Source: a virus. From it: 27,982 bases of DNA. The stretch covers positions 1 through 27,982 of IMG/VR virus record IMGVR_UViG_3300049783_001444. One strand, given 5' to 3'. The notes beneath the pieces were generated by a model. It was not told the origin of the DNA. It was given only the letters and a program-made list of their open reading frames with translations, and searched no databases. The position numbers were made by a program, and so were the translations under genes. Shown here piece by piece: positions 6,603-27,396 of this stretch; position 1 is the stretch's first letter, and every line of letters starts with the position of its first letter.

Positions 6603-6605
6603 AAT

Positions 6606-7052: not shown

Positions 7053-7053
7053 T

Positions 7054-8249: not shown

Positions 8250-8252
8250 TAA

Positions 8253-9050
8253 ATGATTAGTATAATAATACCAACTTACAGAAACCCAGAATATTTAGAC
8301 ATATGTCTTAAATCAGCAATTGAACAACAACATAATAAAAACGAAATTATTGTTGCTATAGATGGTTTTATAGAAGAAAGTAAAGAAGTACTAGAAAAAT
8401 ATAAAGAAAATATTAATGTTTTAGATCTAGGTAAAAACCAAGGTATGCAGACGGCACTTAATTATGGTGTAATGAATGCTACTAATGAAAAAATATTTAT
8501 TGTAAACGATGATAATGTTTTCTGTAAAGACTTTGATTTAGAAATTGAAGAATATTTACAAGAAAAACACGTATTAACTCTAAACCAAATCGAACCTACA
8601 GGCCCTGGTATATTTAAATTCCCTGTTAAAGATTTAGGGCGTAATCCAAAGGATTTTAAATACGATGAATTTATTGAATACGAACAATCAATTAGAAAAA
8701 ATGAATTAAGTTTAGATGGTGGTATATTTCCATTTGCAATGTATAAAAAATATTATATGGCAGTAGGTGGATTTGATGTAATGTATAAATCCCCATTTAT
8801 ATGTGATTGGGATTTTTTCCTTAAACTAGATTTAATTGGATTAGGGTTTACAAGAACACATAATGCCCATTTATATCATTTTGGAAGTTCAGCTACAAAA
8901 AATGGAAACGAAGGTGAAAAGTTTAAAGCAACTGAAGAACCAGCAGCACAAGTATTTATGTATAAATGGGGCATTCCACCTCAATTATTTTTAAATCATA
9001 GTCATAATCCTAAAAATGGTTTAGTTATAAAGGGTATAAAATTTAATTAA
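8253..9050 (+). CDS. GT-A glycosyltransferase (family 2)
   Basis: 265 aa. A classic family 2 start, ISIIIPTYRNPEYLDICLKS, is followed by EIIVAIDG, LGKNQGMQTALNYG and the metal-site region IFIVNDDNVF (about 86-95). FPFAMYKKYYMAVGGFD and the acidic CDWDFFLKL (about 186-194) match the acceptor-side/catalytic region. It would transfer a sugar in the cytoplasm using an NDP-sugar donor. The stop and the next ATG share a base (TAATG). Specificity unknown. Confidence 0.88.
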   Translation: MISIIIPTYRNPEYLDICLKSAIEQQHNKNEIIVAIDGFIEESKEVLEKYKENINVLDLGKNQGMQTALNYGVMNATNEKIFIVNDDNVFCKDFDLEIEEYLQEKHVLTLNQIEPTGPGIFKFPVKDLGRNPKDFKYDEFIEYEQSIRKNELSLDGGIFPFAMYKKYYMAVGGFDVMYKSPFICDWDFFLKLDLIGLGFTRTHNAHLYHFGSSATKNGNEGEKFKATEEPAAQVFMYKWGIPPQLFLNHSHNPKNGLVIKGIKFN

Positions 9051-9739
9051 TGAGAATAATCTATAGAATATCAGATACTGGTTATAGTAAAGTAAAACCT
9101 GATTATATCAACAATGAAAAGTGTTTAGCAAATGCTGCTAAAGAATTTGACGATTCTATTTGGAGTGTTATAGCAGACAACGTATCATCATATACTAATG
9201 ATATGATTCAAAAGTATTTAACACGTAATTGTATCTTATATGTTGAGAAAGGTAATGGAGCGGCAACATTTAATTTGGCGTTAGATGAAGCTTTAACATA
9301 TGACGATGATGAAATTGTTTATTTTTTAGAAAATGATTATCTTCACAAACCCGGCTCTCAAAAAATAATCCAAGAAGCGTTTGAATTAGGGGCATCATTT
9401 GTGTCATTATATGACCACCCAGATAAGTATATTGGACCAGAACAAGGTGGTAACCCATACTGTAAAGGTGGTGCTGAAGATACTAGGGTATACAAAACAG
9501 ATTCCATACATTGGAAGATAACAAACAGTACAACTATGACATTTGCTGCCAAAGTTAGTACATTAAAAGAAAATGAAGACATACTTAGAAAACATACATC
9601 AGGAACACATCCAAATGATTTTCAAATGTTTTTAGAATTACGAGAACAAAATAAATTATTAATAACACCGATACCAGGTTATGCAACTCATGGAGAAACA
9701 GCTTGGTTATCACCTTTAACAGATTGGAGTAAAATATGA
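9050..9739 (+). CDS. Putative GT-A-like glycosyltransferase
   Basis: 229 aa. No textbook GT2 start, but the layout is GT-A-like: RIIYRISDTGYSKVKPDYI, then NGAATFNLALDEAL, then DDDEIVYFLENDYLHKPG (about 84-101), where ENDY stands at the usual DxD position. EAFELGASFVSLYDHPD follows. Its place between a GT2 and an epimerase supports glycan synthesis. It shares 4 nt with the next gene (ATGA). Family assignment is by pattern only; a non-transferase role is possible. Confidence 0.65.
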   Translation: MRIIYRISDTGYSKVKPDYINNEKCLANAAKEFDDSIWSVIADNVSSYTNDMIQKYLTRNCILYVEKGNGAATFNLALDEALTYDDDEIVYFLENDYLHKPGSQKIIQEAFELGASFVSLYDHPDKYIGPEQGGNPYCKGGAEDTRVYKTDSIHWKITNSTTMTFAAKVSTLKENEDILRKHTSGTHPNDFQMFLELREQNKLLITPIPGYATHGETAWLSPLTDWSKI

Positions 9740-10737
9740 AAAAAAATATATTAATAACAGGTGTAGCGGGTTTATTAGGTAGTAGATTAGCTGATTGGAT
9801 AATTGAAAATAAAGGAGATGAATATCAAGTAATTGGTGTTGATGATTTAAGTGGAGGGTTCAAAGAAAATGTGAATCCCGAAGTTAAATTTTGGCAAATG
9901 GATTTAGTTAACCACCCAATTGAGAATATATTTGAATTTCATAAAATCGATTATGTATACCATTTTGCTGCTTATGCTGCTGAGGGATTATCGCCTTTTA
10001 TACGTTCGTACAACTATGATAACAATTTAAAAGCCACGGCCCGCATAGTCAATGAATGCATAAAGAACGACGTTAAAAGATTGGTATTTACGTCAACATT
10101 AGCAGTATATGGTCATGGTGAAGGTGGAATATTTGATGAAGATCAACAACAAGCTCCAATTGATCCTTATGGTGTCGCGAAATATGCTTGTGAAATGGAT
10201 ATTCAAATAGCAGCTGAACAACATGGTTTAGATTATTGTATTATTCGACCACATAATGTTTATGGTATTAATCAGAATATTTGGGATAAGTATAGAAATG
10301 TATTAGGCATTTGGATGTATCAGTATTTGAATGGGCAACCAATGACAATATTTGGAGACGGTGAACAAACACGAGCATTTAGTTATATAGATGACTCATT
10401 AGAGCCATTTTGGAATGCTGCTATAAAACCTAAAGCTAGTAAAGAAATAATTAATTTAGGGGGTATTGATGAATATTCAATTAAAGAAGCAGCTGAAGTG
10501 TTAAAAGAAGTAATGGGTGCTGAAGAAGTTGTATATTTAGAAGGTAGACACGAAGTAAAACATTCTATCCCAACTTACCAAAAATCCATTGATATATTAG
10601 GTTTTGAACATAAAACTTCATTAAAAGAGGGCTTAACTGAAATGTGGGAATGGGCTAAAAAACAACCTATGAGAGATAGATTTGTATGGCCTAGCTATGA
10701 ATTAGAAAAAGGCATTTACTCGTTTTGGAAAAATTAG
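9736..10737 (+). CDS. NAD-dependent sugar epimerase/dehydratase (extended SDR)
   Basis: 333 aa, the usual length for the family. TGVAGLLG (8-15) is the TGxxGxxG nucleotide-binding loop, VDDLSGG follows strand 2, FTSTLAVYG (about 118-126) is the active-site Ser/Thr strand, and Y145xxxK149 (YGVAK) is the catalytic pair. IIRPHNVYG and the later FGDGEQTRAFSYIDD are hallmarks of UDP-glucose 4-epimerase-like enzymes. It would convert one NDP-sugar into another for the neighbouring transferases. The exact sugar cannot be decided between 4-epimerase and related decarboxylase/dehydratase activities. The next gene starts with TTG inside its last codons. Confidence 0.9.
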   Translation: MKKNILITGVAGLLGSRLADWIIENKGDEYQVIGVDDLSGGFKENVNPEVKFWQMDLVNHPIENIFEFHKIDYVYHFAAYAAEGLSPFIRSYNYDNNLKATARIVNECIKNDVKRLVFTSTLAVYGHGEGGIFDEDQQQAPIDPYGVAKYACEMDIQIAAEQHGLDYCIIRPHNVYGINQNIWDKYRNVLGIWMYQYLNGQPMTIFGDGEQTRAFSYIDDSLEPFWNAAIKPKASKEIINLGGIDEYSIKEAAEVLKEVMGAEEVVYLEGRHEVKHSIPTYQKSIDILGFEHKTSLKEGLTEMWEWAKKQPMRDRFVWPSYELEKGIYSFWKN

Positions 10738-11309
10738 AATTTATAGTTCCTACTTTCAAAGATGATATCCAATTAATGGGTCTAATCTACTCATTAATAG
10801 CTCAAAGTAATAATAACTGGACAGCCCACATAATATCAGATGGTGAATATGAGGGGTTTAATGAAGTTGTAGAACATTTTTGTTTAAATAATCAAATTAA
10901 GTTTTCAACAATTAAAGGTCCAAATAATGATTGGGGACATACAGCTAGAAACTATGGTTTAAAACACTCCAGTGAAGAATGGGTTGTAATGACAGGAGCA
11001 GATAATTATTATATGCCTGATTTTGTAGATGAATTCCTAAAAATACCTGAAATTGATGGAGATTATAACTTCATATATTGTAATATGGTTCATAATGAAG
11101 CTCACTACAAACATTATCAAGTATTAGAAACTCAATTGAGGGTAAATGAAATTGATATGGGATGTTTTGCTACAAGGTCTAAATATTCAAAACAAATAAA
11201 ATTAGATACAAAAAGCTATCAAGCAGACTGGCGTTTCGTAGAAAACTATCGTATATTATACCCAAGCAAGGTTAACCACATAAAAAAAGTATTATATGTC
11301 CACAATTAA
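10725..11309 (+). CDS. GT-A glycosyltransferase (family 2-like)
   Basis: 194 aa. LEFIVPTFKDDIQLMGLIYSL is a GT2 start. WTAHIISDGEYEGF, the WGHTARNYGLKHS helix and VVMTGADNYYMPDF (about 88-101, with ADN at the metal site) complete the donor domain. No ATG fits before the family start, so TTG at 10725 is used, overlapping the epimerase by 13 nt. It is shorter than most GT2 proteins and lacks a long acceptor domain. The next gene overlaps its end by 14 nt. Confidence 0.82.
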   Translation: MEKLEFIVPTFKDDIQLMGLIYSLIAQSNNNWTAHIISDGEYEGFNEVVEHFCLNNQIKFSTIKGPNNDWGHTARNYGLKHSSEEWVVMTGADNYYMPDFVDEFLKIPEIDGDYNFIYCNMVHNEAHYKHYQVLETQLRVNEIDMGCFATRSKYSKQIKLDTKSYQADWRFVENYRILYPSKVNHIKKVLYVHN

Positions 11310-11811
11310 AGTCCCAGACGAATTAACTTTACCTGTGATACAATGGGTAAGAAAAATATCACATAGGAAAAGATACTTAAAACAATCACCCCCTGAACAC
11401 GTTGGTAAAGTAATTGGGGCTAGGTTTATAAATAAAAAGGATTTCCCGCTTTATAAAGAATTAAAGGCAATAGACCATTATATTTTAAAAGCTTTTGGTT
11501 ATAAGAAAAATACACCTATTTGTAAAAAAGATGGTTGGTTTTTATCCTATTCTGAAGACGGACATATAGTTCATACTCATAAAGACAAAAATCCTGATAA
11601 TGAAAATTATATTGTTAGGTTTAATGTTATAGTTTCAAAACCAGAAGTTGGAGGTAATCCCATTATAGATGGTAATGAAATTGAAGTTGAGGAAAACGAA
11701 GTATGGGTTTGTAAGGCAGGAGAAGATTTTCACAGCACAACTGAAGTAAAAGGTCAATTCCCAAGGGTTATGATAAGTTTTGGACATTATATAAATAAAG
11801 AATTGATATGA
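11296..11811 (+). CDS. 2-oxoglutarate/Fe(II)-dependent oxygenase
   Basis: 171 aa. The jelly-roll iron site is visible: H95-x-D97 (THKDK), distal H146 (EDFHSTTEV) and R157 (FPRVMISFG) for 2-oxoglutarate. Such enzymes hydroxylate or otherwise oxidise a substrate using O2 and 2-oxoglutarate, releasing CO2 and succinate. It is embedded in the glycan operon between a glycosyltransferase and a UDP-sugar dehydrogenase, so a sugar or the glycan-bearing protein is a plausible substrate (inference). It ends in a 4-nt overlap with the next gene. Confidence 0.82.
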   Translation: MSTIKVPDELTLPVIQWVRKISHRKRYLKQSPPEHVGKVIGARFINKKDFPLYKELKAIDHYILKAFGYKKNTPICKKDGWFLSYSEDGHIVHTHKDKNPDNENYIVRFNVIVSKPEVGGNPIIDGNEIEVEENEVWVCKAGEDFHSTTEVKGQFPRVMISFGHYINKELI

Positions 11812-12629
11812 GTATAGGAATTATAGGACAGGGTTTTGTTGGCAACGCAGTTTTTCAAAAGTTTAAAAAATATTATGACATAAAAGCATATGATTTAAAA
11901 GCTATGTTATCAAATGCAACTGAACAGGAAGTATTAGATAATGATGTTGTATTTATTTGTTTACCAACACCAATGAATAAAGATGGTAGTTGCTATATAG
12001 ATATAGTTGAGGCCGCTATTAAACGTGTATTTGAATTTGGAGTTGCTACGACAGTAGTTATTAAATCGACTGTACCCCCAGGTACTACATCTAAATGGAA
12101 TAAACAATTCCCATCACTTGATATTGTATTCAACCCTGAATTTTTAACTGAAGCAAATGCCGTAAGTGATTATGAAAACCAAACACGTATTATATTGGGT
12201 GGGCCTAGAAAATCAACCACTAAATTAAAACCTATATTTGCTAAAGTATTTCCAAAGGCATCAATTATTAAAACTGCTTCAACATATGCTGAAATGGTTA
12301 AGTACGTTACCAACTCGTTTTTAGCAACTAAAGTATCATTTGCAAATGAAATGTATCAAATATGTGAGGGATTAGATGTTGATTACGATAAAGTAATAGA
12401 ATATGCTACGTATGATGAACGGTTAGGTAAATCTCATTGGGCAGTACCAGGACCAGATGGTGATTTTGGGTATGGAGGTCATTGTTTTCCTAAAGATGTA
12501 AATGCATTAATCGAAGTAGCTATTGCTAATAAAGTATTCCCACTTATGTTAGTAGCAACTGATGAAAAAAATGGTCAAGTTAGACAAAATAAAGACTGGG
12601 AAAAAATGAAAGGTAGAGCAATAATATAA
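11808..12629 (+). CDS. ugd: UDP-glucose/GDP-mannose 6-dehydrogenase family, short form
   Basis: 273 aa. GIIGQGFVG (4-12) is the NAD-binding loop, FICLPTP (about 49-55) follows, and STVPPGTT (87-94), NPEFL (109-113) and K165-x3-N169 are conserved. The catalytic cysteine is C226 in GYGGHCFPKD. The enzyme would oxidise an NDP-sugar C6 alcohol to a uronic acid with two NAD+. Family members are usually about 390-450 aa; this one ends soon after the central helical domain and lacks the C-terminal UDP-binding domain. The gene is intact with no frameshift, so the short form is probably natural. Short phage versions may use a different or larger substrate. Confidence 0.88.
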   Translation: MSIGIIGQGFVGNAVFQKFKKYYDIKAYDLKAMLSNATEQEVLDNDVVFICLPTPMNKDGSCYIDIVEAAIKRVFEFGVATTVVIKSTVPPGTTSKWNKQFPSLDIVFNPEFLTEANAVSDYENQTRIILGGPRKSTTKLKPIFAKVFPKASIIKTASTYAEMVKYVTNSFLATKVSFANEMYQICEGLDVDYDKVIEYATYDERLGKSHWAVPGPDGDFGYGGHCFPKDVNALIEVAIANKVFPLMLVATDEKNGQVRQNKDWEKMKGRAII

Positions 12630-12633
12630 AACT

Positions 12634-13203
12634 ATGGCATCAATATACACAATAGAAAATTTTTATACAGACCCTGATTATGTAAGGCAAGAGGCATTAA
12701 ACATGGAATGGTTTGATAAAAAAGGTAACCATCCTGGCAAACGTACAAATCCTATAAAGGACATATCAGTCAAAAATAAGATTGAAACTGAAATAAATAG
12801 AACTATCATTGATTGGGATGCTGATTGGAACACTTATAGTGGTGTTTTTAATCTTTGTACTCAACAAGATAGATGTTGGATACATTCAGATTGGGGTACA
12901 ACTTGGGCATGTGTAATATACTTAACCCCAGACGCACCATTATCATCAGGTACTGGGTTATATAAACATAATAAAACAGGATTCCGTTCACCACCAAAAG
13001 ATAAAGCATTTGCTGATGAAATAGCTAAAGATGGTTTAGATTTTACTGCATGGGAAGTAACTGACGTTATAGGCAATGTATATAACAGAGCAGTTGTGTA
13101 TGAAGGGCATTATTATCATTCTGCGGTACAATACTTTGGGCACTCACCCGAATATTGTAGACTACATCAAACATTTTTCTTTTCTACTAAGGAAGACTCT
13201 TAA
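12634..13203 (+). CDS. DUF6445-like 2OG/Fe(II) oxygenase-type protein
   Basis: 189 aa. The iron-binding triad is H84-x-D86 (WIHSDWG), H162 (YYHSAVQYFG) and R176 (CRLHQTFFF). The surrounding WACVIYLTPDAPLSSGTGLY and GNVYNRAVVYEG follow the double-stranded beta-helix of DUF6445-type proteins. It is the last gene of the first glycan operon and is followed by promoter P3. A hydroxylase role on the glycan or a protein is inferred from fold and neighbours; the substrate is unknown. Confidence 0.8.
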   Translation: MASIYTIENFYTDPDYVRQEALNMEWFDKKGNHPGKRTNPIKDISVKNKIETEINRTIIDWDADWNTYSGVFNLCTQQDRCWIHSDWGTTWACVIYLTPDAPLSSGTGLYKHNKTGFRSPPKDKAFADEIAKDGLDFTAWEVTDVIGNVYNRAVVYEGHYYHSAVQYFGHSPEYCRLHQTFFFSTKEDS

Positions 13204-13208
13204 AGACC

Positions 13209-13233
13209 CCCGCGTAAAAATTAGGCTACCGCA
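13209..13233 (+). repeat. 25-nt repeat copy, identical to 17002-17026
   Basis: The 25 nt from CCCGCGTAAAAATTAGG to ACCGCA are identical here and at 17002-17026. A diverged copy lies at 21583-21604 (with GGATACC). The repeat contains the TTAG box and the first part of the spacer of promoters P3 and P4, so it is a dispersed promoter-bearing cassette rather than a simple repeat. Confidence 0.85.
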
Positions 13234-13252
13234 TAGATAGTTCGTATATTTA
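13221..13252 (+). promoter_or_regulatory. Promoter P3 (TTAG-N20-TATATTTA)
   Basis: TTAG (13221-13224), a 20-nt spacer starting GCTACCGCA and ending GTTCG, then TATATTTA (13245-13252). ACGG-type sequence and an AT-rich leader ending AAAGGTT precede the ATG at 13284. Architecture matches the Bacteroidota -33/-7 promoter, with TTAG in place of TTTG. Confidence 0.7.
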
Positions 13253-13283
13253 CGGTATAATAATAATAATAAAAATAAAGGTT

Positions 13284-14021
13284 ATGTCAAACGAAACGCA
13301 ATTAGATTTATTTGAAGGAAAAATTTTAACAACTGATCAAAAACTAGAAATTCAACAATATATTTCTAGATGTGATAAAGAAGTTCTTAGAAAACAAAAC
13401 GAGAATAGAGAAATCATGTTATTACTTGATGAAGCTGGTTTTAGACAGGGTATTGATTATGTAAATGATTTTGGAGTAGATGTAAAAACTTATGAGCATG
13501 AGTTTGGTTATTGTTACAACAATACTGAATGGGTTGCTGAAGTTGAAGTAATGAGAAGTAGTGGTGGGTGTCAAATTTTATTTGATTCATTTCGAAATGG
13601 TAAAATTGAAATGGGTAAAAGTTATGTTAGTAGAGAAGGTGATAAATTACAATGTACTAGTATTACTTCACAATATAGATATTATAAGCCAAGTTCATTA
13701 TTAGCTAAACTTAAAGAACATAATAATTTCTCATTAAGACAATTAGAAGCTACTAATAAAAAACAAAGTATACTAGAATACACAGTTGAGAAATATACAA
13801 AATTATTTCCTAATGCTGAAGTTAAAGTAGGTCGTGATTATGATAGAAATAGAAACAATTTTAATGAATTTTCCACAATAATAATTAATTTCACATCAGG
13901 TAGTTATGTTATTTATAGATTAGGTTATAATAATGATGGAGAATATTTACATAAAAAGTTTGATAATGTAGTTGATACATTAAAAGGAATGGATTTATTA
14001 AATCACTTTAACAATCAATAA
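13284..14021 (+). CDS. Unknown 245-aa protein
   Basis: It starts at the ATG directly after the AAAGGTT leader of promoter P3. The N-terminus (ETQLDLFEGK) resembles a clamp-binding peptide (QLDLF), a motif used by proteins that bind bacterial or phage sliding clamps. This may be chance but fits a replication-linked role. A helical segment (about 15-55) is followed by two similar-looking mixed domains, each with a charged YDVKTYEHEFGY- or RDYDRNRNNFNEF-type segment. No enzyme motif is recognised. The next gene follows after one base. Confidence 0.8.
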   Translation: MSNETQLDLFEGKILTTDQKLEIQQYISRCDKEVLRKQNENREIMLLLDEAGFRQGIDYVNDFGVDVKTYEHEFGYCYNNTEWVAEVEVMRSSGGCQILFDSFRNGKIEMGKSYVSREGDKLQCTSITSQYRYYKPSSLLAKLKEHNNFSLRQLEATNKKQSILEYTVEKYTKLFPNAEVKVGRDYDRNRNNFNEFSTIIINFTSGSYVIYRLGYNNDGEYLHKKFDNVVDTLKGMDLLNHFNNQ

Positions 14022-14022
14022 T

Positions 14023-14394
14023 ATGAAAGATAGAATAGAAATAGATGGAGTATGGTACACTAGAGAAGATAATACAACTCCCGAAGTAATCCCTCAACTA
14101 GAACCCTCCATATCATATGAAGGTTTAGTATTTGAATCCGATCTTTATTGTTTTGAAGTCACTAGATTAAGAGATGACACAGGTAACTTTTATGATAAAC
14201 AATGTGATATTCAATTTACTGATAAAAAATTAGATATAGACAACTCAGAACATTGGGATAGTGTAGATTGGATGTGTGGTATTTTAGAAAATGAAGTGGA
14301 AGCAATTGATGAGGCAATGGAATCATTGTGTTCTCAAGGATTAATTGAATTAAAAGAAGTATTAAAAGAATTAGCTGAAAAGGGGTGGATATGA
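14023..14394 (+). CDS. Unknown acidic 123-aa protein
   Basis: The start ATG follows the previous stop as TAATATG. The protein is strongly acidic, with a beta-rich N-terminal half (IEIDGVWYTRED, LVFESDLYCFEVTRL) and a helical C-terminus (MESLCSQGLIELKEVLKELAEKG). No known domain is recognised. Its stop overlaps the next start (ATGA), so it belongs to the P3 operon. Confidence 0.78.
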   Translation: MKDRIEIDGVWYTREDNTTPEVIPQLEPSISYEGLVFESDLYCFEVTRLRDDTGNFYDKQCDIQFTDKKLDIDNSEHWDSVDWMCGILENEVEAIDEAMESLCSQGLIELKEVLKELAEKGWI

Positions 14395-14621
14395 GTTGGA
14401 ATCATAGAGTAATGAAACACGAAAAGGCAGATGGAGATGATGATTGGTATCAAATTCATGAAGTTCACTATAACAGTAAACGGAAACCAGAGAGTTGGAC
14501 TGTAGAAGGTATTGCCCCTGGAGGTAATACGCTTGAGGATTTAAGAGATGAATTAATTAGGATGTTAGAAGCAACAGAAAAAAATATATTAAATTATGAA
14601 ATTAAAAATGATCAAATGTAA
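14391..14621 (+). CDS. Small conserved-looking protein (76 aa)
   Basis: Starts MSWNHRVMKHE, continues with YQIHEVHYNSKRKPESWT and ends in a helix (LEDLRDELIRMLEATEKNIL). I recall this layout in small uncharacterised proteins of both bacteria and phages; no function is established. ATG 14391 is chosen because it forms the ATGA overlap with the previous gene; a GTG two codons upstream is possible. The 3' end overlaps the next gene by 26 nt. Confidence 0.78.
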   Translation: MSWNHRVMKHEKADGDDDWYQIHEVHYNSKRKPESWTVEGIAPGGNTLEDLRDELIRMLEATEKNILNYEIKNDQM

Positions 14622-14874
14622 CTCATGTGAAGGTGATATGCCTGAACTAAGATTAACAACATACAGTTATGACTTCTGCGTTAAATGTTCAGAAAGTGGA
14701 AACAAGGTTAAAGCTAAACATGGTGTTAATATTATGATGGGTGAAGGAGACCATACATGGGTTGAAACTGTGATTATGGATGAAGACCAATATAACAACT
14801 ACCAGAAATCATATAATTCAAATAAACCAGAACCAACGTTAATTGAATTTGGGATAGAAGTAAATGGCAAATAA
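14596..14874 (+). CDS. Small zinc-binding protein (CxxC...CxxC)
   Basis: 92 aa. C8-N-S-C11 and C28-V-K-C31 form a four-cysteine zinc site, with the second pair in FCVKC, reminiscent of DksA/TraR-type fingers. The C-terminal half is acidic and shows no further motif. It overlaps its upstream neighbour by 26 nt and the next gene by 11 nt. It may bind nucleic acid or a protein partner; which one cannot be told from sequence. Confidence 0.75.
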   Translation: MKLKMIKCNSCEGDMPELRLTTYSYDFCVKCSESGNKVKAKHGVNIMMGEGDHTWVETVIMDEDQYNNYQKSYNSNKPEPTLIEFGIEVNGK

Positions 14875-15481
14875 GAAGAAATTTTTAAGTAAGGAACAAA
14901 TAGTAGCGGCACAGGGTAAAACACTATCCAATATGGCTGCCGCTAGGTACCTTCATGTTTCATATCAACATTATAAGAAATACGCTAAAATGTATACCTT
15001 ATTTGAGGACCATAAAAACCAATCAGGTAAGGGTATACCTAAGTATTTAAAAGGCCCTAAAAAAATGCCTCATATGAAGGAGATAATTGAAGGTAGGATA
15101 GCAGCCTCCTCATTTAATCCAAACAAGCTTAAATACGCTTTAATAGAACAAGGGTATATAGCAGAGGAATGTGTTTCGTGTAAATTTAAAGAAAGACGAG
15201 TATTAGATTATAAAATACCTTTATTATTACATTTTAAAGATAAAAACAGTAACAACTATAGTTTAGACAATGTTCAATTATTATGTTATAACCATTATTT
15301 TCTACAAGTAGGAGACATATTTAATAAACAAGATGTTAAACAACTTGAGTCACAACAAGAACATTATGGTACAAGTGAAACTATTGAATTTGAAGTTGAT
15401 GATTACCACTTACAACGTTTAAAAGAGTTAGGTTTAGATGGTGAAGATGATGATGTTGATCAATATATAAGCAGAATATAA
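14864..15481 (+). CDS. HNH-like zinc protein with helix-turn-helix-type N-terminus
   Basis: 205 aa. Residues 8-45 (KEQIVAAQGKTLSNMAAARYLHVSYQHYKKYAK) read as a helix-turn-helix segment. Then comes a treble-clef-like core: C103-x2-C106, LLLHFKDKN with H123, LDNVQLLC with N136 and C141, and H144 in CYNHYF. It looks like an HNH endonuclease core in which the last CxxC cysteine is replaced by H144. The C-terminus is very acidic. I recall this type in marine T4-like phages. It could be a DNA-binding regulator or a homing-type nuclease; whether it still cuts DNA is uncertain. Confidence 0.7.
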   Translation: MANKKKFLSKEQIVAAQGKTLSNMAAARYLHVSYQHYKKYAKMYTLFEDHKNQSGKGIPKYLKGPKKMPHMKEIIEGRIAASSFNPNKLKYALIEQGYIAEECVSCKFKERRVLDYKIPLLLHFKDKNSNNYSLDNVQLLCYNHYFLQVGDIFNKQDVKQLESQQEHYGTSETIEFEVDDYHLQRLKELGLDGEDDDVDQYISRI

Positions 15482-15637
15482 ATGAAAAATAAAAAACATC
15501 ATAAGATTACTAAGGACTATAATAAGCAAAAAAGTAAGCATCTGGAAAAGTTAACAAATAAAATGCTTAAAAATGATGAAAAAGCTCAACAATTAAAATC
15601 AAAACCAATTAAGGGTGATTTTTTAAAAAACTTTTAA
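15482..15637 (+). CDS. Lysine-rich 51-aa protein
   Basis: An uninterrupted ATG...TAA frame fills the gap exactly: it begins directly after the previous stop and ends 1 nt before the next ATG. The product (MKNKKHHKITKDYNKQKSKH...) is about one third lysine, with two histidines, so very basic; it may bind nucleic acid. No motif is recognised. The perfect fit between neighbours argues that it is a real gene despite its size. Confidence 0.65.
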   Translation: MKNKKHHKITKDYNKQKSKHLEKLTNKMLKNDEKAQQLKSKPIKGDFLKNF

Positions 15638-15638
15638 C

Positions 15639-16229
15639 ATGAAAAAATTAGATAGTATATCGTTAGTATTATTATTTTCAATTATATTATTCTCAACAGT
15701 GGCCTTTACAACTATTGTTAGAGCCAAAGCACAACCCATTATTCAACTTAAACCCAAACCTATAGTTGAAATGCAAGTTAAAATAACAGCACCTGAACTT
15801 GTAATAATGTCAACCTCACATGAGCAGTTTTTAAATGCAATGGGGCATAGAGAATCAACTAATAATTATACAGTTGTTAATAAATTTGGTTATATGGGTA
15901 GATACCAATTTGGTCAATCAACACTTAAAGGGTTAGGTATTAAGGCATCAACAGAAGAATTTATTAATAATCCAGCTTTACAAGAATATGCGATGCAAGA
16001 ATTATTAGTACATAATAAAAAAAAATTAAAGCGATATATTAAAAAATATGAAGGTCAAATTGTTCATGGTGTATTCATAACTGAGTCAGGGATATTAGCT
16101 GCTGCCCATATAGGTGGTGCTGGTAATGTTCGTAGATTTTTTAGGAATGGGTATGAATTTAAAGATGGTTTTGGAACCAAAATGACCTCGTATATGAAGT
16201 TATTTGGGGGGTATAATTTAAATGTTTAA
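15639..16229 (+). CDS. Exported lysozyme/transglycosylase-like protein
   Basis: 196 aa. A signal peptide or N-terminal anchor (SISLVLLFSIILFSTVAFTT, about 6-25) ends at RAKAQ, a possible AxA cleavage site near residue 31. The mature part has FLNAMGHRESTNNYTVVNKFGYMGRYQFG (about 64-92), matching the lysozyme-like transglycosylase fold with E72 as catalytic acid, then YMGRYQFG and a later ESGILAAAHIGGAGNV. It would cut peptidoglycan in the periplasm, as an endolysin exported by the host Sec system or during infection. No holin is obvious beside it, although small membrane proteins lie further on. Confidence 0.8.
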   Translation: MKKLDSISLVLLFSIILFSTVAFTTIVRAKAQPIIQLKPKPIVEMQVKITAPELVIMSTSHEQFLNAMGHRESTNNYTVVNKFGYMGRYQFGQSTLKGLGIKASTEEFINNPALQEYAMQELLVHNKKKLKRYIKKYEGQIVHGVFITESGILAAAHIGGAGNVRRFFRNGYEFKDGFGTKMTSYMKLFGGYNLNV

Positions 16230-16253
16230 TTATATATTTATGTCAAAAATGCA

Positions 16254-16382
16254 ATGGCAAAATTATTACAATTAAGTAATTATACACATAAGTCTAAAAC
16301 AAAAAGACCAGGGATACATTCAAAGAATGCTTCAAAAGGACAAAATGGATATAAAAAAACTTATAAAGGGCAAGGTAGATAA
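16254..16382 (+). CDS. Basic 42-aa protein ending KGQGR
   Basis: ATG 16254 to TAA 16382 encodes 42 residues rich in Lys, Ser and Gly, including KTKRPGIHSKNASKGQ and ending YKKTYKGQGR. I recall short proteins with an RPG-H-K...YKK-Y-GQGR pattern in marine T4-like phages, which supports reality; the function is unknown. Its 3' end overlaps the next gene's start by 38 nt in another frame. Confidence 0.55.
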   Translation: MAKLLQLSNYTHKSKTKRPGIHSKNASKGQNGYKKTYKGQGR

Positions 16383-17010
16383 ATTCAATAAACAAGGTTA
16401 CATCCATTTAAAAAATGTAATTAAACCTCCCTTATTGTCTCATACCCGCTATCAATCTATAGCATTAGCTAAACATTATAGACAATTTGAGGGCCAACCT
16501 AGAGATAATGGTACAGGTATATTTTGGAAAGGGTTAGAAATGGCTTCAACATTACAACCTATGTTATTTGAATCATATACTCATAAAGATATGTTTCATA
16601 TTGCCCAAGCGTTTTTAGGGGTGGATGAACCTTATTTATACAATGATCAAGTAGTAGTTAAATTCCCACTTGATGAATTTACATTTGAACCGCATTATGA
16701 CAATGAATACGGTCCTAATAAAGAGGGAGCATTAAAAGGTGAGTTTAAAACAATAAATTGCTGTCAAATATTAACAAATATGCCCATTAAAAGCGGTCCA
16801 TTACGTTGTTATAACAATGAAACACAACAATATGATGTATTACCCGCTAAAGCTGGAGACATCGTTGTAATCGACGGTAACACATTACATTCTTCTACAC
16901 ATAATCTATCAGATAAAGTAAGAGCACTATATGCTTGTGTTTATTCTTCACACCCCATAGGTGACCACATGCAGGGATTCTATAACGAAAAATTTAAGAC
17001 TCCCGCGTAA
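16345..17010 (+). CDS. PhyH-type 2OG/Fe(II) oxygenase
   Basis: 221 aa from ATG 16345; an earlier in-frame ATG at 16327 would overlap the small upstream gene more. The N-terminus FNKQGYIHLKNVI is the usual PhyH opening. The iron site is H117-x-D119 (PHYDNEYGP) with H182 (LHSSTHNLS) and R193 for 2-oxoglutarate. PhyH enzymes hydroxylate small molecules such as lipids, amino-acid derivatives or sugars; the substrate here is unknown. The last residues and the TAA stop lie inside the promoter-cassette repeat (17002-17026). Confidence 0.85.
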   Translation: MDIKKLIKGKVDKFNKQGYIHLKNVIKPPLLSHTRYQSIALAKHYRQFEGQPRDNGTGIFWKGLEMASTLQPMLFESYTHKDMFHIAQAFLGVDEPYLYNDQVVVKFPLDEFTFEPHYDNEYGPNKEGALKGEFKTINCCQILTNMPIKSGPLRCYNNETQQYDVLPAKAGDIVVIDGNTLHSSTHNLSDKVRALYACVYSSHPIGDHMQGFYNEKFKTPA

Positions 17011-17026
17011 AAATTAGGCTACCGCA
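17002..17026 (+). repeat. 25-nt repeat copy, identical to 13209-13233
   Basis: Second copy of the promoter-bearing repeat. Here its first nine bases are coding (the last residues and stop of the PhyH-type gene), while the copy at 13209 is wholly intergenic. This supports the cassette having been copied next to different genes. Confidence 0.85.
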
Positions 17027-17045
17027 GTAATATTTCGTATATTCA
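17014..17045 (+). promoter_or_regulatory. Promoter P4 (TTAG-N20-TATATTCA)
   Basis: TTAG (17014-17017), a 20-nt spacer starting GCTACCGCA and ending TTTCG, TATATTCA (17038-17045), then CGGTG and an AT-rich leader ending AAAGGTT before the ATG at 17071. The TTAG box begins 4 nt after the previous stop. Confidence 0.7.
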
Positions 17046-17073
17046 CGGTGTAATAATAAAAATAAAGGTTATG
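17033..17073 (+). repeat. 41-nt promoter/leader repeat, identical to 19794-19834
   Basis: From TTTCGTATATTCACGG through the AAAGGTTATG start codon, all 41 nt match the copy at 19794-19834. The repeat spans the -7 box, transcription start region, leader and ATG, so genes 17071 and 19832 have the same 5' untranslated region. Confidence 0.9.
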
Positions 17074-17307
17074 AGTGAAAATAAAAGATATGTTGTACAA
17101 ATGGAAATGTACGTTTATGCTGACAACGATTATATGGCTAAAAAACGTGCTAACGATTTAAGATTATCAATTGGTAATAGAAGACATTCCCAAGATGTAG
17201 TAGTTAAAGAAATAGGTGAACAACCATTTGCTTCAACTTATTATAGAAAATTTGACGATCCATCCTTTACACCTAAAGATACGTCTAACGATCCTTTACC
17301 ATTTTAA
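17071..17307 (+). CDS. Unknown 78-aa protein
   Basis: Starts at the ATG of the P4 leader. The first half is a predicted beta-alpha unit (RYVVQMEMYVYADNDYMAKKRANDLRLSIG) and the C-terminus is extended and proline-rich (SFTPKDTSNDPLPF). No domain is recognised. It is followed through TAATATG by a 53-aa gene. Confidence 0.72.
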   Translation: MSENKRYVVQMEMYVYADNDYMAKKRANDLRLSIGNRRHSQDVVVKEIGEQPFASTYYRKFDDPSFTPKDTSNDPLPF

Positions 17308-17308
17308 T

Positions 17309-17470
17309 ATGAAAGCAGGAGATTGGATAACATATGATAATAAACGTAAAAAATGTTTTGGAATACATTTTAATGGTAATATCTTAATAAAGATGAATGG
17401 TACTTTAGTACAAGTACCACATAAAAAAACAAGGTTATGGCAAAACGCGAATATAGAGGTTGCGAATTAG
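17309..17470 (+). CDS. Small beta-rich protein (53 aa)
   Basis: ATG 17309 forms the TAATATG junction with the previous stop. The product, beginning MKAGDWITYDNKRKKCFGIH, looks like a small all-beta (SH3-like) domain. No function is recognised. Its 3' end overlaps the next small ORF by 34 nt. Confidence 0.65.
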   Translation: MKAGDWITYDNKRKKCFGIHFNGNILIKMNGTLVQVPHKKTRLWQNANIEVAN

Positions 17471-17577
17471 AATCTCCACTGTATAGACAAGTAGCAGCTG
17501 AAATGGCTGGTAAACCTCTAATAATCGAATCAAAAACAAAACGAGGTAAGCGCAGTAAAATTAGGCTACCGCAGTAA
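17437..17577 (+). CDS. Small ORF (46 aa) whose end runs through promoter P5
   Basis: ATG 17437 is preceded by ACAAGGTT, close to the AAAGGTT leader seen at promoter-led genes. The product is basic (MAKREYRGCELESPLYRQ...KTKRGKRSK). Its last codons, KIRLPQ-stop, are the TTAG box and spacer of promoter P5 read as coding sequence, so the C-terminus is supplied by the cassette. No known family. Confidence 0.5.
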   Translation: MAKREYRGCELESPLYRQVAAEMAGKPLIIESKTKRGKRSKIRLPQ

Positions 17578-17592
17578 TAGTTCGTATATTTA
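17561..17592 (+). promoter_or_regulatory. Promoter P5 (TTAG-N20-TATATTTA)
   Basis: TTAG (17561-17564), a spacer of 20 nt starting GCTACCGCA and ending GTTCG, TATATTTA (17585-17592). The leader to ATG 17641 is longer than at the other sites and contains TCGAA-TGG-TTCGA (17598-17610), a 5-bp hairpin or a GTTCGA direct repeat that could be an operator. It ends in AAAGGTTAT. Confidence 0.7.
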
Positions 17593-17640
17593 TGTGTTCG
17601 AATGGTTCGAGCGATTAATTAATTAAAAAATAAAGGTTAT

Positions 17641-17835
17641 ATGTTTTATCAAATCACAAATGTTAAGTTAAAAAGAAACAATCAAATTAGAGTTGCATCA
17701 ATGGGTGCTCTTGTTAAAGCGATTAAAAAAGAAGGTTGGTCAATTGGTGATTGTAAGGTTACTGAAATGGCTAAAGAGTTAGTTAATGCTAAATATAAAT
17801 CGCCAGATGGTAGAATGGCAACTAACCAACATTAA
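17641..17835 (+). CDS. Unknown basic 64-aa protein
   Basis: First gene after promoter P5. Starts MFYQITNVKLKRNNQIRV, then a helix (MGALVKAIKKEGWSIGDCKV). The pattern suggests a small alpha/beta protein with no recognised motif. It ends in the TAATATG junction with the next gene. Confidence 0.7.
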   Translation: MFYQITNVKLKRNNQIRVASMGALVKAIKKEGWSIGDCKVTEMAKELVNAKYKSPDGRMATNQH

Positions 17836-17836
17836 T

Positions 17837-18250
17837 ATGAGTAGAGGTAGACCAAAAGAACAAGAAGCAATAGTATGGCAAAAATACACTCAAGAAATGC
17901 TTGAGGTACCATCAAAACCCGAATTAGGTGGAAGATCAGTTTGGCACTATGATAGAAGTAAATTTGATCGTGGTCCGTATAAAACTGAACATTGGGAAGC
18001 TAAAGGTTATAAACAACCTAAACCACAAATTGATCAACGTTTATATGAAAAAAATAGCCCAACTGTAATAATATTTGCTACATCTAACCGTTCAAATGCT
18101 AAGGTAAAAATGAAGATAATTAATAAAAATATTGATTATGTTATCACAGCTAAGAAAATACCAGGTATACCAGAAAAAGCAGAATGGCTTGAATTGGGAG
18201 TTGGTGTGTCCTTTATTGCTAAGTGGAAAAAGAAGTATAATTTGAAGTAA
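17837..18250 (+). CDS. Unknown 137-aa protein
   Basis: ATG 17837 is in a TAATATG junction; upstream codons in frame lie within the previous gene. It starts MSRGRPKEQE, where GRPK resembles a minor-groove AT-hook core. There is a charged middle (SVWHYDRSKFDRGPYKTEHW) and a C-terminal half that looks beta-rich (TVIIFATSNRSNAKVKMKI) and ends in basic residues. DNA binding is possible but not shown. No family recognised. Confidence 0.75.
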   Translation: MSRGRPKEQEAIVWQKYTQEMLEVPSKPELGGRSVWHYDRSKFDRGPYKTEHWEAKGYKQPKPQIDQRLYEKNSPTVIIFATSNRSNAKVKMKIINKNIDYVITAKKIPGIPEKAEWLELGVGVSFIAKWKKKYNLK

Positions 18251-24340: not shown

Positions 24341-25098
24341 TAAGCTACATCATACCTACGTTATGGAAATCTCCTAATATTTTTAAACTAATAAAGGGGT
24401 TTGAATCAATAGATGATCCAAATGCTGAATTAATTATTATTAATAATGATATTAAGACAGTTAATTATAAACCTACAGACGGCAGAATCAGAGTTTTTAA
24501 TATGTCTGAAAACCAGTTTGTAAACCCCTCATGGCAATTAGGAACTCATTATACCACTCAAGAACGAGTATGTATAGTAAATGATGACATAATATTTAAT
24601 ATTAAACGTTTCCATGAATTTGTATTGGCCTCAAATGCTAAAGCAATTTGTATGACTAATTGGAATCGAATAGATAAAGACCAACCCGAATGGGAATTGG
24701 TAAGTAACAATTCACCAAATGCTCGACCTGCTGGAGGTGGTCAATTAATGTTAGTTATGAGACACAATTGGCCTGAATTACCTTACAATATGAAATTATG
24801 GCATGGTGATGATATCATCTATTATTACAATACACTAATTAAAGAAATTGACTTTTGTTTTATTAGAGGCATGTCAGTAACAGGTGACCAAAGTGTAAGC
24901 GTTAACAGCAATATTATACCAAAAAAAATGGGTGAAACATTTACTCAAGATACCTTGGAGTATTATAAGAAGATGCATATATTGGGTCTATCATGTAGTA
25001 CAATATTCCCTATGGAATTAAAAATGGCCTGGAAATATGATGATATAGATACAAAACTTAAATACGAACAAAAATTAAATAGAATAATCAATGGCTAA
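24337..25098 (+). CDS. GT-A-like glycosyltransferase
   Basis: 253 aa. Starts MISYIIPTLWKSPNIFKLI, then AELIIINNDI and, at the metal-site position, VCIVNDDIIF (about 82-91, two Asp). ARPAGGGQLMLVMRHNWPELP (about 128-148) and WHGDDIIYYYN resemble the acceptor-side/catalytic region of GT2-like proteins. It is the first gene of the second glycan/hydroxylation locus and overlaps the small membrane gene by 4 nt. Sugar unknown. Confidence 0.75.
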   Translation: MISYIIPTLWKSPNIFKLIKGFESIDDPNAELIIINNDIKTVNYKPTDGRIRVFNMSENQFVNPSWQLGTHYTTQERVCIVNDDIIFNIKRFHEFVLASNAKAICMTNWNRIDKDQPEWELVSNNSPNARPAGGGQLMLVMRHNWPELPYNMKLWHGDDIIYYYNTLIKEIDFCFIRGMSVTGDQSVSVNSNIIPKKMGETFTQDTLEYYKKMHILGLSCSTIFPMELKMAWKYDDIDTKLKYEQKLNRIING

Positions 25099-25432
25099 AA
25101 CGTGTGCTTGGTGCTTTAAAAAGACGAACTTACCAGATGTATTTGCTGCGGAAGCTCCATTAATGATATTTATGGAGGAACGTATTGATGAATGGTGTGA
25201 AAAGAATGATGTTACAAGAGATGAGTTATGGGGTGCTAATGGTGATTGGACACAACTTGAACTTGACCCTACAATGGAGGCTGAATTATTAGCATATGAT
25301 GAGTTAGTAGCAGGTGTATCTAAAAAAACCATATGTAAGGAATGTTTAATTGAAGATGATAAAATTTATAAAAAGTTTTATTTAGAATATAATGATGATA
25401 CTGAATTTACAATAGAATTTAAACCAGAATAA
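25091..25432 (+). CDS. Acidic zinc-binding protein (113 aa)
   Basis: C5-A-W-C8 near the start and C82-K-E-C85 near the end could bind one zinc ion. Between them lies an acidic helical domain (EERIDEWCEKNDVTRDELWG). Overlaps the preceding gene by 8 nt. No family recognised; DNA or protein binding is possible. Confidence 0.68.
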   Translation: MAKTCAWCFKKTNLPDVFAAEAPLMIFMEERIDEWCEKNDVTRDELWGANGDWTQLELDPTMEAELLAYDELVAGVSKKTICKECLIEDDKIYKKFYLEYNDDTEFTIEFKPE

Positions 25433-25441
25433 TAATTTGAT

Positions 25442-26812
25442 ATGAAGATAGACCACGTTTTTATAATTAATTTAAACACACCAAATAGGGATATTGAGAA
25501 ACGTTTACAGTCAATAAAATGGCCGTATGAAATACCGTTTTATATATTACCAGCTACTAATGGTTGGGAGGCAGTTAATGATAAATCTAAAGCACACCAT
25601 AATTTTAAACTAGCAGATTGGTGGAAGATAGATATTCAAACATCAGCTAAACATGCCCGCTTTTATACTAGAGAAGTTACACCTGGTGAGGCCGGTTGTA
25701 TGTTATCTCATTATCAATGTATTTACAACGCCTATCATGATGGGTTAGACAACATATTAATATTTGAGGAAGATTTTTACTCACTTGGTAAATTCCCAAC
25801 ACAAACAGAACTAGATGCAGTACCAGATGACGCTAGTATATTATATTTAGATAGGAGCCAACAATGTGTTGATTGGGACGAAATTAGAGTTAATGATTAC
25901 GTTACTAATATTGGATATAGTTACAATAACCATGCTTATATTATGACTAGAAAGGGTATGAAGGAAGTACTCGATTCACCTATATTAGATAATATCATTG
26001 TTAGTGATGAGTTTTTCCCTGCTATAAATGGTACTAGTGATAGAAAAGATGCTATTAGTGTATTCCACAACCCAGAATTTCAAGCGTACGCATTGAATGG
26101 AGGTTATTTTGGACAAACATCTAACCCCGATGTAAATGCACTGACAGAATTTCCACCTGAATACGTTAATTCTTTAAAAACAGAAACTGTAAAAAAGGTA
26201 GCTGAAATATTAGATGATAGTGATTGGGAGGCATGGTGTAAAAAATATATTAGCCCACAAATTCTAAATAAAGAATATGATTTAATTATAGACGAACCAG
26301 CACCTCATGTTTATGTATTTCCATTTTTTACTAAACGTTTTTGTAAACAATTAATTCAATTAGGCGAACAATTTGATTGGACAACTGATAGACACAAGTT
26401 TTATCCTACAACAGATAATTTACTTGAGAAATTAGGTATGGATAAGATTTACAATAAATTAATCAATGAGTTTGTTAGACCATTAGCCATAAATAGATAT
26501 TGGCTTGAAGGTAAAACATGGGATTATTTAACAGACGAATCATTTATAATCAAATACCCTCATGACCAACAAGCACATCTAAGCTTACACCACGATGCTA
26601 GTAGTATAACAACATTAGTAAATTTAAATCCAGGTGATTTTGAAGGTGGTGGAACATATTTTCCCAAATACAAATGTAATGTTAATCCAAAAGATATAGG
26701 TGTAATGACATTACATCCAGGTAATATAACTCATAAACATGGTGCTAGACCAGTAACTAAAGGTACAAGATACGTTGTAGTATCATTTATCAAAAATACA
26801 GACTTACAATAA
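25442..26812 (+). CDS. Fusion of a GT25 glycosyltransferase and a PLOD-like lysyl hydroxylase
   Basis: 456 aa in two domains. Residues 1-240 are GT25-like: VFIINLNTPNRDIEKRL at the start, TPGEAGCMLSHYQCIYNAY (about 80-98), and ILIFEEDF (about 105-112) with the metal-site acidic pair. Residues 285-456 resemble the catalytic domain of procollagen-lysine 5-hydroxylases: VYVFPFFTKRFC, LSLHHDASSIT with iron ligands H383-x-D385, DFEGGGTYFPKY, and HPGNITHKHGA...GTRYVVVSF with H433 and R443. The same His-Asp-His-Arg spacing occurs in human LH3 (PLOD3). If active, it would hydroxylate lysines and then glycosylate them, using 2-oxoglutarate, Fe(II) and a UDP-sugar. Target protein unknown; collagen-like phage proteins would be candidates. 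Confidence 0.85.
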   Translation: MKIDHVFIINLNTPNRDIEKRLQSIKWPYEIPFYILPATNGWEAVNDKSKAHHNFKLADWWKIDIQTSAKHARFYTREVTPGEAGCMLSHYQCIYNAYHDGLDNILIFEEDFYSLGKFPTQTELDAVPDDASILYLDRSQQCVDWDEIRVNDYVTNIGYSYNNHAYIMTRKGMKEVLDSPILDNIIVSDEFFPAINGTSDRKDAISVFHNPEFQAYALNGGYFGQTSNPDVNALTEFPPEYVNSLKTETVKKVAEILDDSDWEAWCKKYISPQILNKEYDLIIDEPAPHVYVFPFFTKRFCKQLIQLGEQFDWTTDRHKFYPTTDNLLEKLGMDKIYNKLINEFVRPLAINRYWLEGKTWDYLTDESFIIKYPHDQQAHLSLHHDASSITTLVNLNPGDFEGGGTYFPKYKCNVNPKDIGVMTLHPGNITHKHGARPVTKGTRYVVVSFIKNTDLQ

Positions 26813-26826
26813 TAAATAAATAAAAA

Positions 26827-27396
26827 ATGATAATAATAGACAATTTTATTCAGGATCAAGTATTAATAGATGATATTATACATGATAAAAATTTCTTTGG
26901 CCCCAATGGAGATTTTATGTGGTGGGATGGTTGGTGGAATAGTTCTGCTAACACTAACAAAAAACGATTAATAGAATATCTATGGAGATACCACTCACCA
27001 GATTCATCATATGATATAAGTGGGTTTGAATATTGGACAGGTGTTTACGGTGAAGGTCATCCAAACCAATCACTTGGTAGACATAAAGATAAAGATGAAT
27101 TACATTGGAAACGAACAGGCGGAGTAGAAGGTGGTGAAATTATAAGACCGGAAATTGGAACAGTATATTACCCAATGTCAACAGAGCATGATGGTGGTTA
27201 TTTGGAAATTGAAAGGTCAAATGGTGAGGTAGAACGTATTGAACCTAAATTTAACCGTCTAGTTATATTTGATGCGGGTAATGATGCTCATAGTGTTACT
27301 AAGGTAACTAATGGAGTGAGATATGCTATAGCAATTAACTTATGGAGGGTAGTACCTGTAGCAGTTCAAGAAGGTTTAATGACAATAGAAAAATAA
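26827..27396 (+). CDS. 2OG/Fe(II)-dependent oxygenase
   Basis: 189 aa. It begins IIIDNFIQDQVLIDDIIHDK, a common opening of this fold. The iron site is H86-x-D88 (GRHKDKDE) with H155 (AHSVTKVTNG) and R165 (VRYAIAINLW). The sheet residues TVYYPMSTEHDGGYLEI are also typical. It follows the GT25-hydroxylase fusion and precedes another glycosyltransferase, so it may hydroxylate the same substrate (inference). The upstream leader is AT-rich (AATAAATAAATAAA) with no Shine-Dalgarno sequence. Confidence 0.82.
   Translation: MIIIDNFIQDQVLIDDIIHDKNFFGPNGDFMWWDGWWNSSANTNKKRLIEYLWRYHSPDSSYDISGFEYWTGVYGEGHPNQSLGRHKDKDELHWKRTGGVEGGEIIRPEIGTVYYPMSTEHDGGYLEIERSNGEVERIEPKFNRLVIFDAGNDAHSVTKVTNGVRYAIAINLWRVVPVAVQEGLMTIEK

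What the first reader, a model, noticed from the sequence alone, without database searches (positions are those of the whole stretch)
25442..26812. Phage-encoded fusion resembling animal multifunctional lysyl hydroxylase (LH3)
An N-terminal GT25-like transferase and a C-terminal domain with the PLOD signature (HHDAS, EGGGTYF, HPGNITHKH, GTRYVVVSF) sit in one 456-aa protein. Human LH3 combines lysyl hydroxylase and glycosyltransferase activity for collagen, and a giant-virus enzyme with a related combination is known. In a bacteriophage this would imply hydroxylysine-linked glycosylation of a phage or host protein, possibly a collagen-like tail protein.
Basis: partly seen in the sequence, partly recalled or inferred. 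Interest (0 to 1): 0.82.

Follow-up and report, generated by a model that had tools for sequence, protein, structure and literature searches.

The report
Phage enzyme decorating collagen-like tail fibres
A marine phage gene joins two enzymes that animals use to modify collagen, one adding hydroxyl groups to lysines and one adding sugar to them, and related phages carry it together with long collagen-like tail proteins, so phages probably run an animal-style collagen decoration pathway of their own.

Summary
ORF 25442-26812 (456 aa) is a fusion of a GT25 domain and a C-terminal lysyl-hydroxylase (PLOD/LH) domain. The LH domain is nearest to human LH3 and mimivirus L230, far above prolyl hydroxylases in sequence (2e-24 against 0.004) and fold (Z 25.5 against about 15). 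The GT25 domain is nearest to the catalytic domain of human collagen galactosyltransferase COLGALT1 (Z 24.6), not to LH3's own transferase. Active-site residues of both domains are invariant in 30 phage relatives. The missing substrate appears in relatives: 28 of 44 viral records with this enzyme also encode collagen-like proteins, often directly upstream, against 1 of 41 phages of the window's lineage without it. In collagens of enzyme carriers, lysine sits almost only at the Y position (832 against 1 at X). In the window's clade collagens lie 32-35 kb downstream beyond baseplate genes, past the window's end. A second transferase (GT4) is linked as neighbour or fused domain. Cultured cyanophages instead fuse GT25, an LH3-type glucosyltransferase domain and LH near a collagen-like tail fibre, annotated as hypothetical. 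Most likely function: hydroxylating and glycosylating lysines of collagen-like tail fibres. Activity and sugar identity are inferred, not shown.

The parts
25442..26812 (+). GT25-LH fusion gene, 456 aa
   Evidence: ORF; Pfam and PDB matches; relatives 53-77% identical over full length
25442..26161 (+). N-terminal GT25 domain (residues 1-240), COLGALT1 catalytic-domain type
   Evidence: PF01755 3.1e-10; COLGALT1 1.3e-20 with profile; model residues 1-229 on COLGALT1 Z 24.6, rmsd 2.3 over 213-214 residues
25766..25774 (+). E109-E110-D111, predicted metal/UDP-sugar site aligning with the EDD core of the COLGALT1 GalT-C domain
   Evidence: Alignment; E109 and D111 invariant, position 110 E or D, in 30 sequences; COLGALT1 EDD described in PMC13382579
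26225..26794 (+). C-terminal lysyl-hydroxylase (PLOD/LH) domain, residues 262-451
   Evidence: LH3 2.2e-24 and L230 3.2e-24; L230 Z 25.5, rmsd 1.9 over 186 residues
26588..26596 (+). H383-x-D385, two of three Fe(II) ligands (L230 H825, D827)
   Evidence: Alignment; invariant in 30 sequences
26738..26740 (+). H433, third Fe(II) ligand (L230 H877)
   Evidence: Alignment; invariant in 30 sequences
26768..26770 (+). R443, predicted 2-oxoglutarate-binding Arg (L230 R887)
   Evidence: Alignment; invariant in 30 sequences
26827..27396 (+). Second 2OG-Fe(II) oxygenase (PF13640), conserved neighbour in most of the window's clade
   Evidence: Pfam 6.8e-11; next to GT25-LH in L002, L004-L008, L109, L133, L135
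27401..27982 (+). GT4-type glycosyltransferase, cut off by the contig end; constant partner of GT25-LH
   Evidence: 33% identical (1e-27) and 32% (2e-18) to the N-terminal GT4 part of GT4-GT25-LH fusions L117 and L148; adjacent in all window-clade relatives tested and an upstream gene in L110, L112, L114, L126, L137, L139, L140
25091..25432 (+). Small 113-aa ORF with CxxC pairs, conserved directly upstream of GT25-LH; role unknown
   Evidence: tblastn in L002-L009, L108, L133, L135

Best explanation
The protein is a bifunctional collagen-lysine modifying enzyme of a tailed marine phage. Its C-terminal Fe(II)/2-oxoglutarate domain hydroxylates lysines at the Y position of Gly-X-Y repeats in newly made phage tail or tail-fibre proteins. 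Its N-terminal GT25 domain then transfers a sugar (galactose by analogy with COLGALT1, glucose not excluded) to the new hydroxyl. The neighbouring GT4 transferase probably extends this to a disaccharide, a step done in cultured cyanophages by a fused LH3-type glucosyltransferase domain. The decoration would stabilise, hydrate or shield the long collagen-like fibres. Shown here: domain identity, conserved active sites, linkage to collagen genes and to a second transferase. Inferred: catalytic activity, sugar identity, order of steps, benefit, and the presence of a collagen gene in this phage's own genome beyond the contig end.
For: Homology of both domains to collagen-lysine enzymes and not to the nearest alternatives. 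Active-site residues invariant in 30 phage sequences at 35-77% identity to the window protein. Collagen-like ORFs in 28 of 44 enzyme-bearing viral records against 1 of 41 enzyme-lacking phages of the window's lineage. Collagen gene directly upstream of the enzyme gene in many divergent loci, gap 18 nt in L117. In the window's clade only two of 12 contigs reach more than 31 kb downstream of the enzyme, and both hold collagen ORFs, at 34.6 and 32.2 kb, beyond a baseplate-wedge gene. MAG G007, holding the closest relative (77%), also holds a phage contig with terminase, tail sheath, portal and a 919-aa collagen-like ORF. Lys in GXY is 832 at Y and 1 at X in 26 enzyme-positive records, against 175 and 87 in 76 enzyme-negative ones. 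In a sample of 80 collagen-bearing viral contigs chosen by DNA pattern alone, the only two strong LH hits lie in Lys-Y-rich collagen records. Cultured cyanophages S-PRM1, S-CAM9, S-8S55 and Roseobacter phage CRP-6 carry the GT25...LH protein a few genes from a collagen-like tail fibre with Lys only at Y.
Against: No collagen-like ORF in the 28-kb window itself. No biochemical or mass-spectrometric evidence. Collagen-like proteins also occur in phages without this enzyme (L167; most of the 80-contig sample), and a Lys/Arg preference at Y is known in phage collagens generally (PMC3368898). Enzyme-positive records are related to one another and differ in length from the controls. Some collagens of enzyme carriers have very few Lys (L110, L112, L140, L117).
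Confidence: 0.8

Rival explanations
1. The enzyme hydroxylates and glycosylates lysines, but on a non-collagenous virion or host protein; the collagen linkage reflects both being in tail-fibre modules.
For: In the window's clade enzyme and collagen genes are 32-35 kb apart and the enzyme sits in a glycan-gene island.
Against: Direct adjacency to collagen genes in many divergent lineages, the Lys-at-Y pattern, and known substrates of the nearest characterised enzymes (LH3, L230, COLGALT1) being collagens.
Confidence: 0.08
2. The C-terminal domain is an ordinary prolyl-4-hydroxylase-like oxygenase acting on proline or another residue.
For: Shared 2OG-oxygenase fold; P4H structures score Z about 14-15.
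Against: LH3/L230 score far higher in sequence (2e-24 against 0.004) and fold (25.5 against 15.2); proline is scarce at Y in these collagens, 0-2 residues in each ORF counted; in the tree LH3 and L230 fall with the phage LH domains and apart from ordinary phage 2OG enzymes, with moderate support 81/87.
Confidence: 0.05
3. The GT25 domain is a dead scaffold, like the accessory domain of LH3 or the GalT-N domain of COLGALT1, so only hydroxylation takes place.
For: The model also superposes on the LH3 accessory plus LH domains, residues 1-452 on 295-738 (Z 26.3 but rmsd 10.3); that accessory domain is inactive (PMC13382579).
Against: The metal motif E-E/D-D and the GExGCxxSH, HAY, DE and R201 positions are invariant in 30 sequences; the best sequence match is the catalytic GalT-C domain of COLGALT1.
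Confidence: 0.06
4. The oxygenase-transferase pair makes a hypermodified, glucosylated DNA base (JBP/base J-like logic).
For: Phages are known for DNA hypermodification (general knowledge), and a hydroxylase plus glycosyltransferase pair fits formally.
Against: Neither domain matched a nucleic-acid-modifying family in Pfam or PDB searches; both halves are nearest to collagen-lysine enzymes; linkage is to collagen genes. PHROG labels such as DNA endonuclease are names of 2OG-like clusters and carry no test.
Confidence: 0.01

Closest known systems
Human LH3/PLOD3
   Same: C-terminal LH domain homologous over its length (2.2e-24), same Fe and 2OG ligands; multifunctional hydroxylase plus transferase chain
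   Different: LH3's N-terminal transferase is the PLOD GT domain (PF25342), absent here; the phage protein is about 60% of its length with an active-type GT25 domain in the place of the accessory domain
Human COLGALT1 (GLT25D1)
   Same: Phage GT25 domain aligns with its catalytic C-terminal GalT domain including the acidic metal core
   Different: COLGALT1 has two GalT domains and no hydroxylase; it acts in a complex with LH3, whereas the phage fuses the two activities in one chain
Mimivirus L230
   Same: Viral protein with a glycosyltransferase and a C-terminal LH domain, shown to hydroxylate and glycosylate collagen (PMC5802723, PMC9546862); LH domain 30-31% identical, Z 25.5
   Different: 895 aa against 456; virus of amoebae; L230 adds glucose to Hyl; here a tailed phage, presumably with a bacterial host
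Cyanophage S-PRM1 AXN58392 and Roseobacter phage CRP-6 gp58
   Same: GT25 and LH domains in one protein close to a collagen-like tail fibre
   Different: Extra PLOD GT domain between GT25 and LH; LH domain about 28% identical and with Lys in place of the 2OG Arg; deposited as hypothetical protein

Membership tests
PLOD/LH lysyl hydroxylase domain | Sequence homology to LH3/L230 over the whole catalytic domain | tested here: met
   2.2e-24 and 3.2e-24, residues 262-451
PLOD/LH lysyl hydroxylase domain | Fe triad HxD...H plus 2OG-binding Arg at H+10 | tested here: met
   H383, D385, H433, R443, invariant in 30 sequences
PLOD/LH lysyl hydroxylase domain | Fold closest to LH structures and well above P4H structures | tested here: met
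   Model pLDDT 85.9; L230 Z 25.5 against best P4H 15.2
PLOD/LH lysyl hydroxylase domain | Hydrophobic dimer contact (L230 L873 into aromatic pocket) | tested here: inconclusive
   L873 corresponds to I429 (I in 29 of 30); one pocket aromatic kept (Y353, always W/F/Y), the Y831 position is I389, mostly aliphatic
PLOD/LH lysyl hydroxylase domain | Hydroxylates lysine of collagen | not testable with these tools
   Needs enzyme assay or mass spectrometry
GT25 / collagen galactosyltransferase | GT25 homology with best match to the COLGALT1 catalytic domain | tested here: met
   PF01755 3.1e-10; COLGALT1 1.3e-20 with profile; Z 24.6 against 15.5 for bacterial GT25
GT25 / collagen galactosyltransferase | Acidic metal-binding core | tested here: met
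   E109-E/D110-D111 in 30 of 30 sequences
GT25 / collagen galactosyltransferase | Galactose donor and Hyl acceptor | not testable with these tools
   Sugar cannot be read from sequence; L230 uses glucose (PMC9546862)
LH3-type multifunctional enzyme | PLOD GT domain PF25342 | tested here: not met
   No PF25342 match in the window protein; present in S-PRM1 at 9e-46 and CRP-6 at 4.5e-28

The most novel reading that the evidence does not exclude
Tailed phages hold a complete, self-contained collagen-lysine decoration pathway (hydroxylation, first sugar, second sugar) for their own collagen-like fibres, with the second transferase swapped between a GT4 enzyme and an LH3-type domain and with fusions in several orders. 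The animal and giant-virus collagen enzymes would then be members of a wider pool in which phages take part.
Probability: 0.5. Interest if true: 0.9.

Novelty: new variant of a known kind. Interest (0 to 1): 0.82.

Why it matters
Glycosylated hydroxylysine is regarded as a hallmark of animal collagen, with mimivirus the noted viral exception (PMC9614988, PMC8968730, PMC9546862). A phage-encoded version, linked to collagen-like tail proteins of up to 2,707 aa, would extend it to viruses of bacteria, give compact single-chain enzymes for making decorated recombinant collagen in bacteria, and explain oxygenase genes beside tail fibres in cultured cyanophages that are annotated as hypothetical. 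It can be tested with phages already in culture. No paper describing it was found in the library that could be searched.

Tried and rejected
A first structure model from 9 close sequences was poor (pLDDT 53.4) and was not used; the model from 30 diverse sequences was. The idea that the gene belongs to the bacterial host was rejected: among 299 Flavobacteriaceae genomes only the MAG already known had it, and that MAG also holds a phage contig. Lys at Y was first read as proof of substrate; it was downgraded because basic residues prefer Y in phage collagens generally, and Arg is also nearly absent at X in enzyme-positive records. Tandem repeats and tRNAs in the window: none. Weak profile hits in G395, G419, G425, G447 and G461 were not counted as LH, their open frames being only about 200-230 aa. 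In one search no positive control was run with that alignment; profiles A3 and A5 did find known or new members.

Full report
What is there. ORF 25442-26812 encodes 456 aa. Pfam gives GT25 at residues 5-122 and OGFOD2-like plus 2OG-FeII_Oxy at 275-451; human LH3 and mimivirus L230 LH domains hit the same two oxygenase models. Against the PDB, residues 265-451 match LH3 at 2.2e-24 and L230 at 3.2e-24, while the best P4H is 0.004; residues 4-195 match COLGALT1.

Family. Viral and MAG relatives are 53-77% identical over both domains. Profiles of each half alone found many more divergent loci. Reading their ORFs shows three layouts: GT25-LH (437-500 aa), GT4-GT25-LH (about 763-827 aa), and, in cultured cyanophages and Roseobacter phage CRP-6, GT25-PLOD GT-LH (589-621 aa). 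The window's downstream gene at 27401 is homologous to the GT4 part of the long fusions. GT4 adjoins GT25-LH in every window-clade locus tested, is an upstream gene in another group, and is fused in a third. Fusion in some genomes and adjacency in others is classical evidence for a shared pathway; a second sugar is the natural inference.

Active sites. Over 30 sequences at 35-77% identity to the window protein the LH ligands H383, D385, H433 and R443 and the GT25 acidic core E109-E/D110-D111 are kept. The acidic core aligns with the EDD core of the COLGALT1 GalT-C domain, described as the catalytic one (PMC13382579).

Structure. The 30-sequence model has pLDDT 85.9 and pTM 0.54, so the domains are reliable and their mutual orientation is not. 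The LH domain superposes on L230 at Z 25.5, rmsd 1.9 over 186 residues; the GT domain on COLGALT1 at Z 24.6, rmsd 2.3-2.4 over 213-214. The next levels are P4H at about 15, and mimivirus R655 (16.9) and bacterial GT25 (15.5). In a tree LH3 and L230 fall with the phage LH domains and apart from ordinary phage 2OG oxygenases with moderate support (81/87); the cyanophage type is on a long branch and its place is unsure.

Substrate. PF01391 collagen matches are absent from the window but present in the whole records of L005 and L007, with ORFs of 1088 and 584 aa and of 2707, 1268 and 658 aa, and in both MAGs. Across further enzyme-bearing viral records 26 of 38 have collagen, giving 28 of 44 with the first six; in phages of the window's lineage, chosen by the clamp loader and lacking the enzyme, 1 of 41 (Fisher 4e-10). 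Contig length differs between the sets. Counted by hand, records of 35 kb or more are 18 of 24 against 1 of 5, and records of 10-30 kb are 10 of 18 against 0 of 35; several enzyme-positive records are near-duplicates, so these are not independent observations. In many divergent loci the collagen gene is immediately upstream of the enzyme gene.

Why the window shows none. In the window's clade the collagens lie 34.6 kb (G004) and 32.2 kb (G006) downstream of the enzyme in the same orientation. Of 12 contigs only these two reach more than 31 kb downstream; the window has 1.2 kb. A baseplate-wedge gene lies between enzyme and collagens in both, and the collagen-like ORFs that were scanned match tail-fibre PHROGs. 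In MAG G007, which holds the closest relative, a separate contig carries terminase, tail sheath, portal and a 919-aa collagen-like ORF; that both contigs come from one phage is inferred from binning only.

Lysine position. In 26 enzyme-positive records GXY triplets hold Lys 832 times at Y and once at X; in 76 enzyme-negative collagen records 175 and 87; the fraction of Y that is Lys is higher in the first (Mann-Whitney p 1e-6). Animal LH modifies Lys at Y. A preference of basic residues for Y is general in phage collagens (PMC3368898), so this shows suitability as substrate, not modification. In the 80-contig sample drawn by a bare GG-every-nine-bases DNA pattern, only two records have strong LH hits (4.6e-73 and 4.2e-53); these collagens have 55% and 24% Lys at Y and none at X, ranking first and eighth. 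Both were missed by the peptide-pattern scans, so recall of those scans is incomplete.

Mechanism. Shown: domain identities, conserved catalytic residues, genomic linkage of LH, GT25, second transferase and collagen. Inferred: LH hydroxylates Gly-X-Lys in unfolded fibre chains, GT25 adds the first sugar, GT4 the second; decorated fibres are more stable or better shielded. Galactose is the analogy from COLGALT1; L230 uses glucose (PMC9546862), so the sugar is open.

Known and new. The chemistry and both domain families are known, and an LH-transferase protein is known from mimivirus. New to the literature searched here is the pathway in tailed phages, with self-encoded collagen-like tail proteins and modular second transferases. 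BFVD already contains an uncultured Caudovirales protein auto-named procollagen-lysine 5-dioxygenase, so single annotations exist. I therefore rate it a new variant of a known kind.

Noticed in passing
window 11296-11811, 12634-13203, 16327-17010, 26827-27396: Besides the LH domain the 28-kb window holds up to four more predicted 2OG-oxygenase-like genes: PF13640 at 26827, PhyH at 16327, DUF6445 at 12634, and a weak phrog_13746 match at 11296. Their roles are unknown.
   Followed up: partly
window 3877-13203: A glycan island: two GT4-like genes, several GT2 genes, a nucleotide-sugar epimerase, a UDP-glucose dehydrogenase-like gene and a methyltransferase. It could supply UDP-sugars for the fibre pathway.
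   Followed up: no
L164:4696-6537 (S-PRM1 AXN58392), L174:7696-9540 (S-CAM9), L165:4621-6486 (S-8S55), L166:4759-6528 (CRP-6): Cultured phage proteins annotated hypothetical or 2OG-Fe(II) oxygenase: S-PRM1 and CRP-6 carry GT25, PLOD GT and LH domains in one chain; S-8S55 and S-CAM9 are homologous proteins at the same place. All lie close to a collagen-like tail fibre.
   Followed up: yes
L020 (G006:10001-29500): Collagen-like ORFs of 2707, 1268 and 658 aa in one phage contig; the review PMC8968730 describes phage collagens as about 18 residues.
   Followed up: partly
L169 (G055:8000-26000) 9303-17999: A run of four large ORFs made of GSS/GTS triplets, Gly-X-Y-like but without Lys, near an enzyme-bearing locus. 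Probably another fibre repeat type.
   Followed up: no
window 25091-25432: Conserved 113-aa ORF with CxxC pairs directly upstream of GT25-LH in nearly all window-clade relatives; no family match.
   Followed up: no
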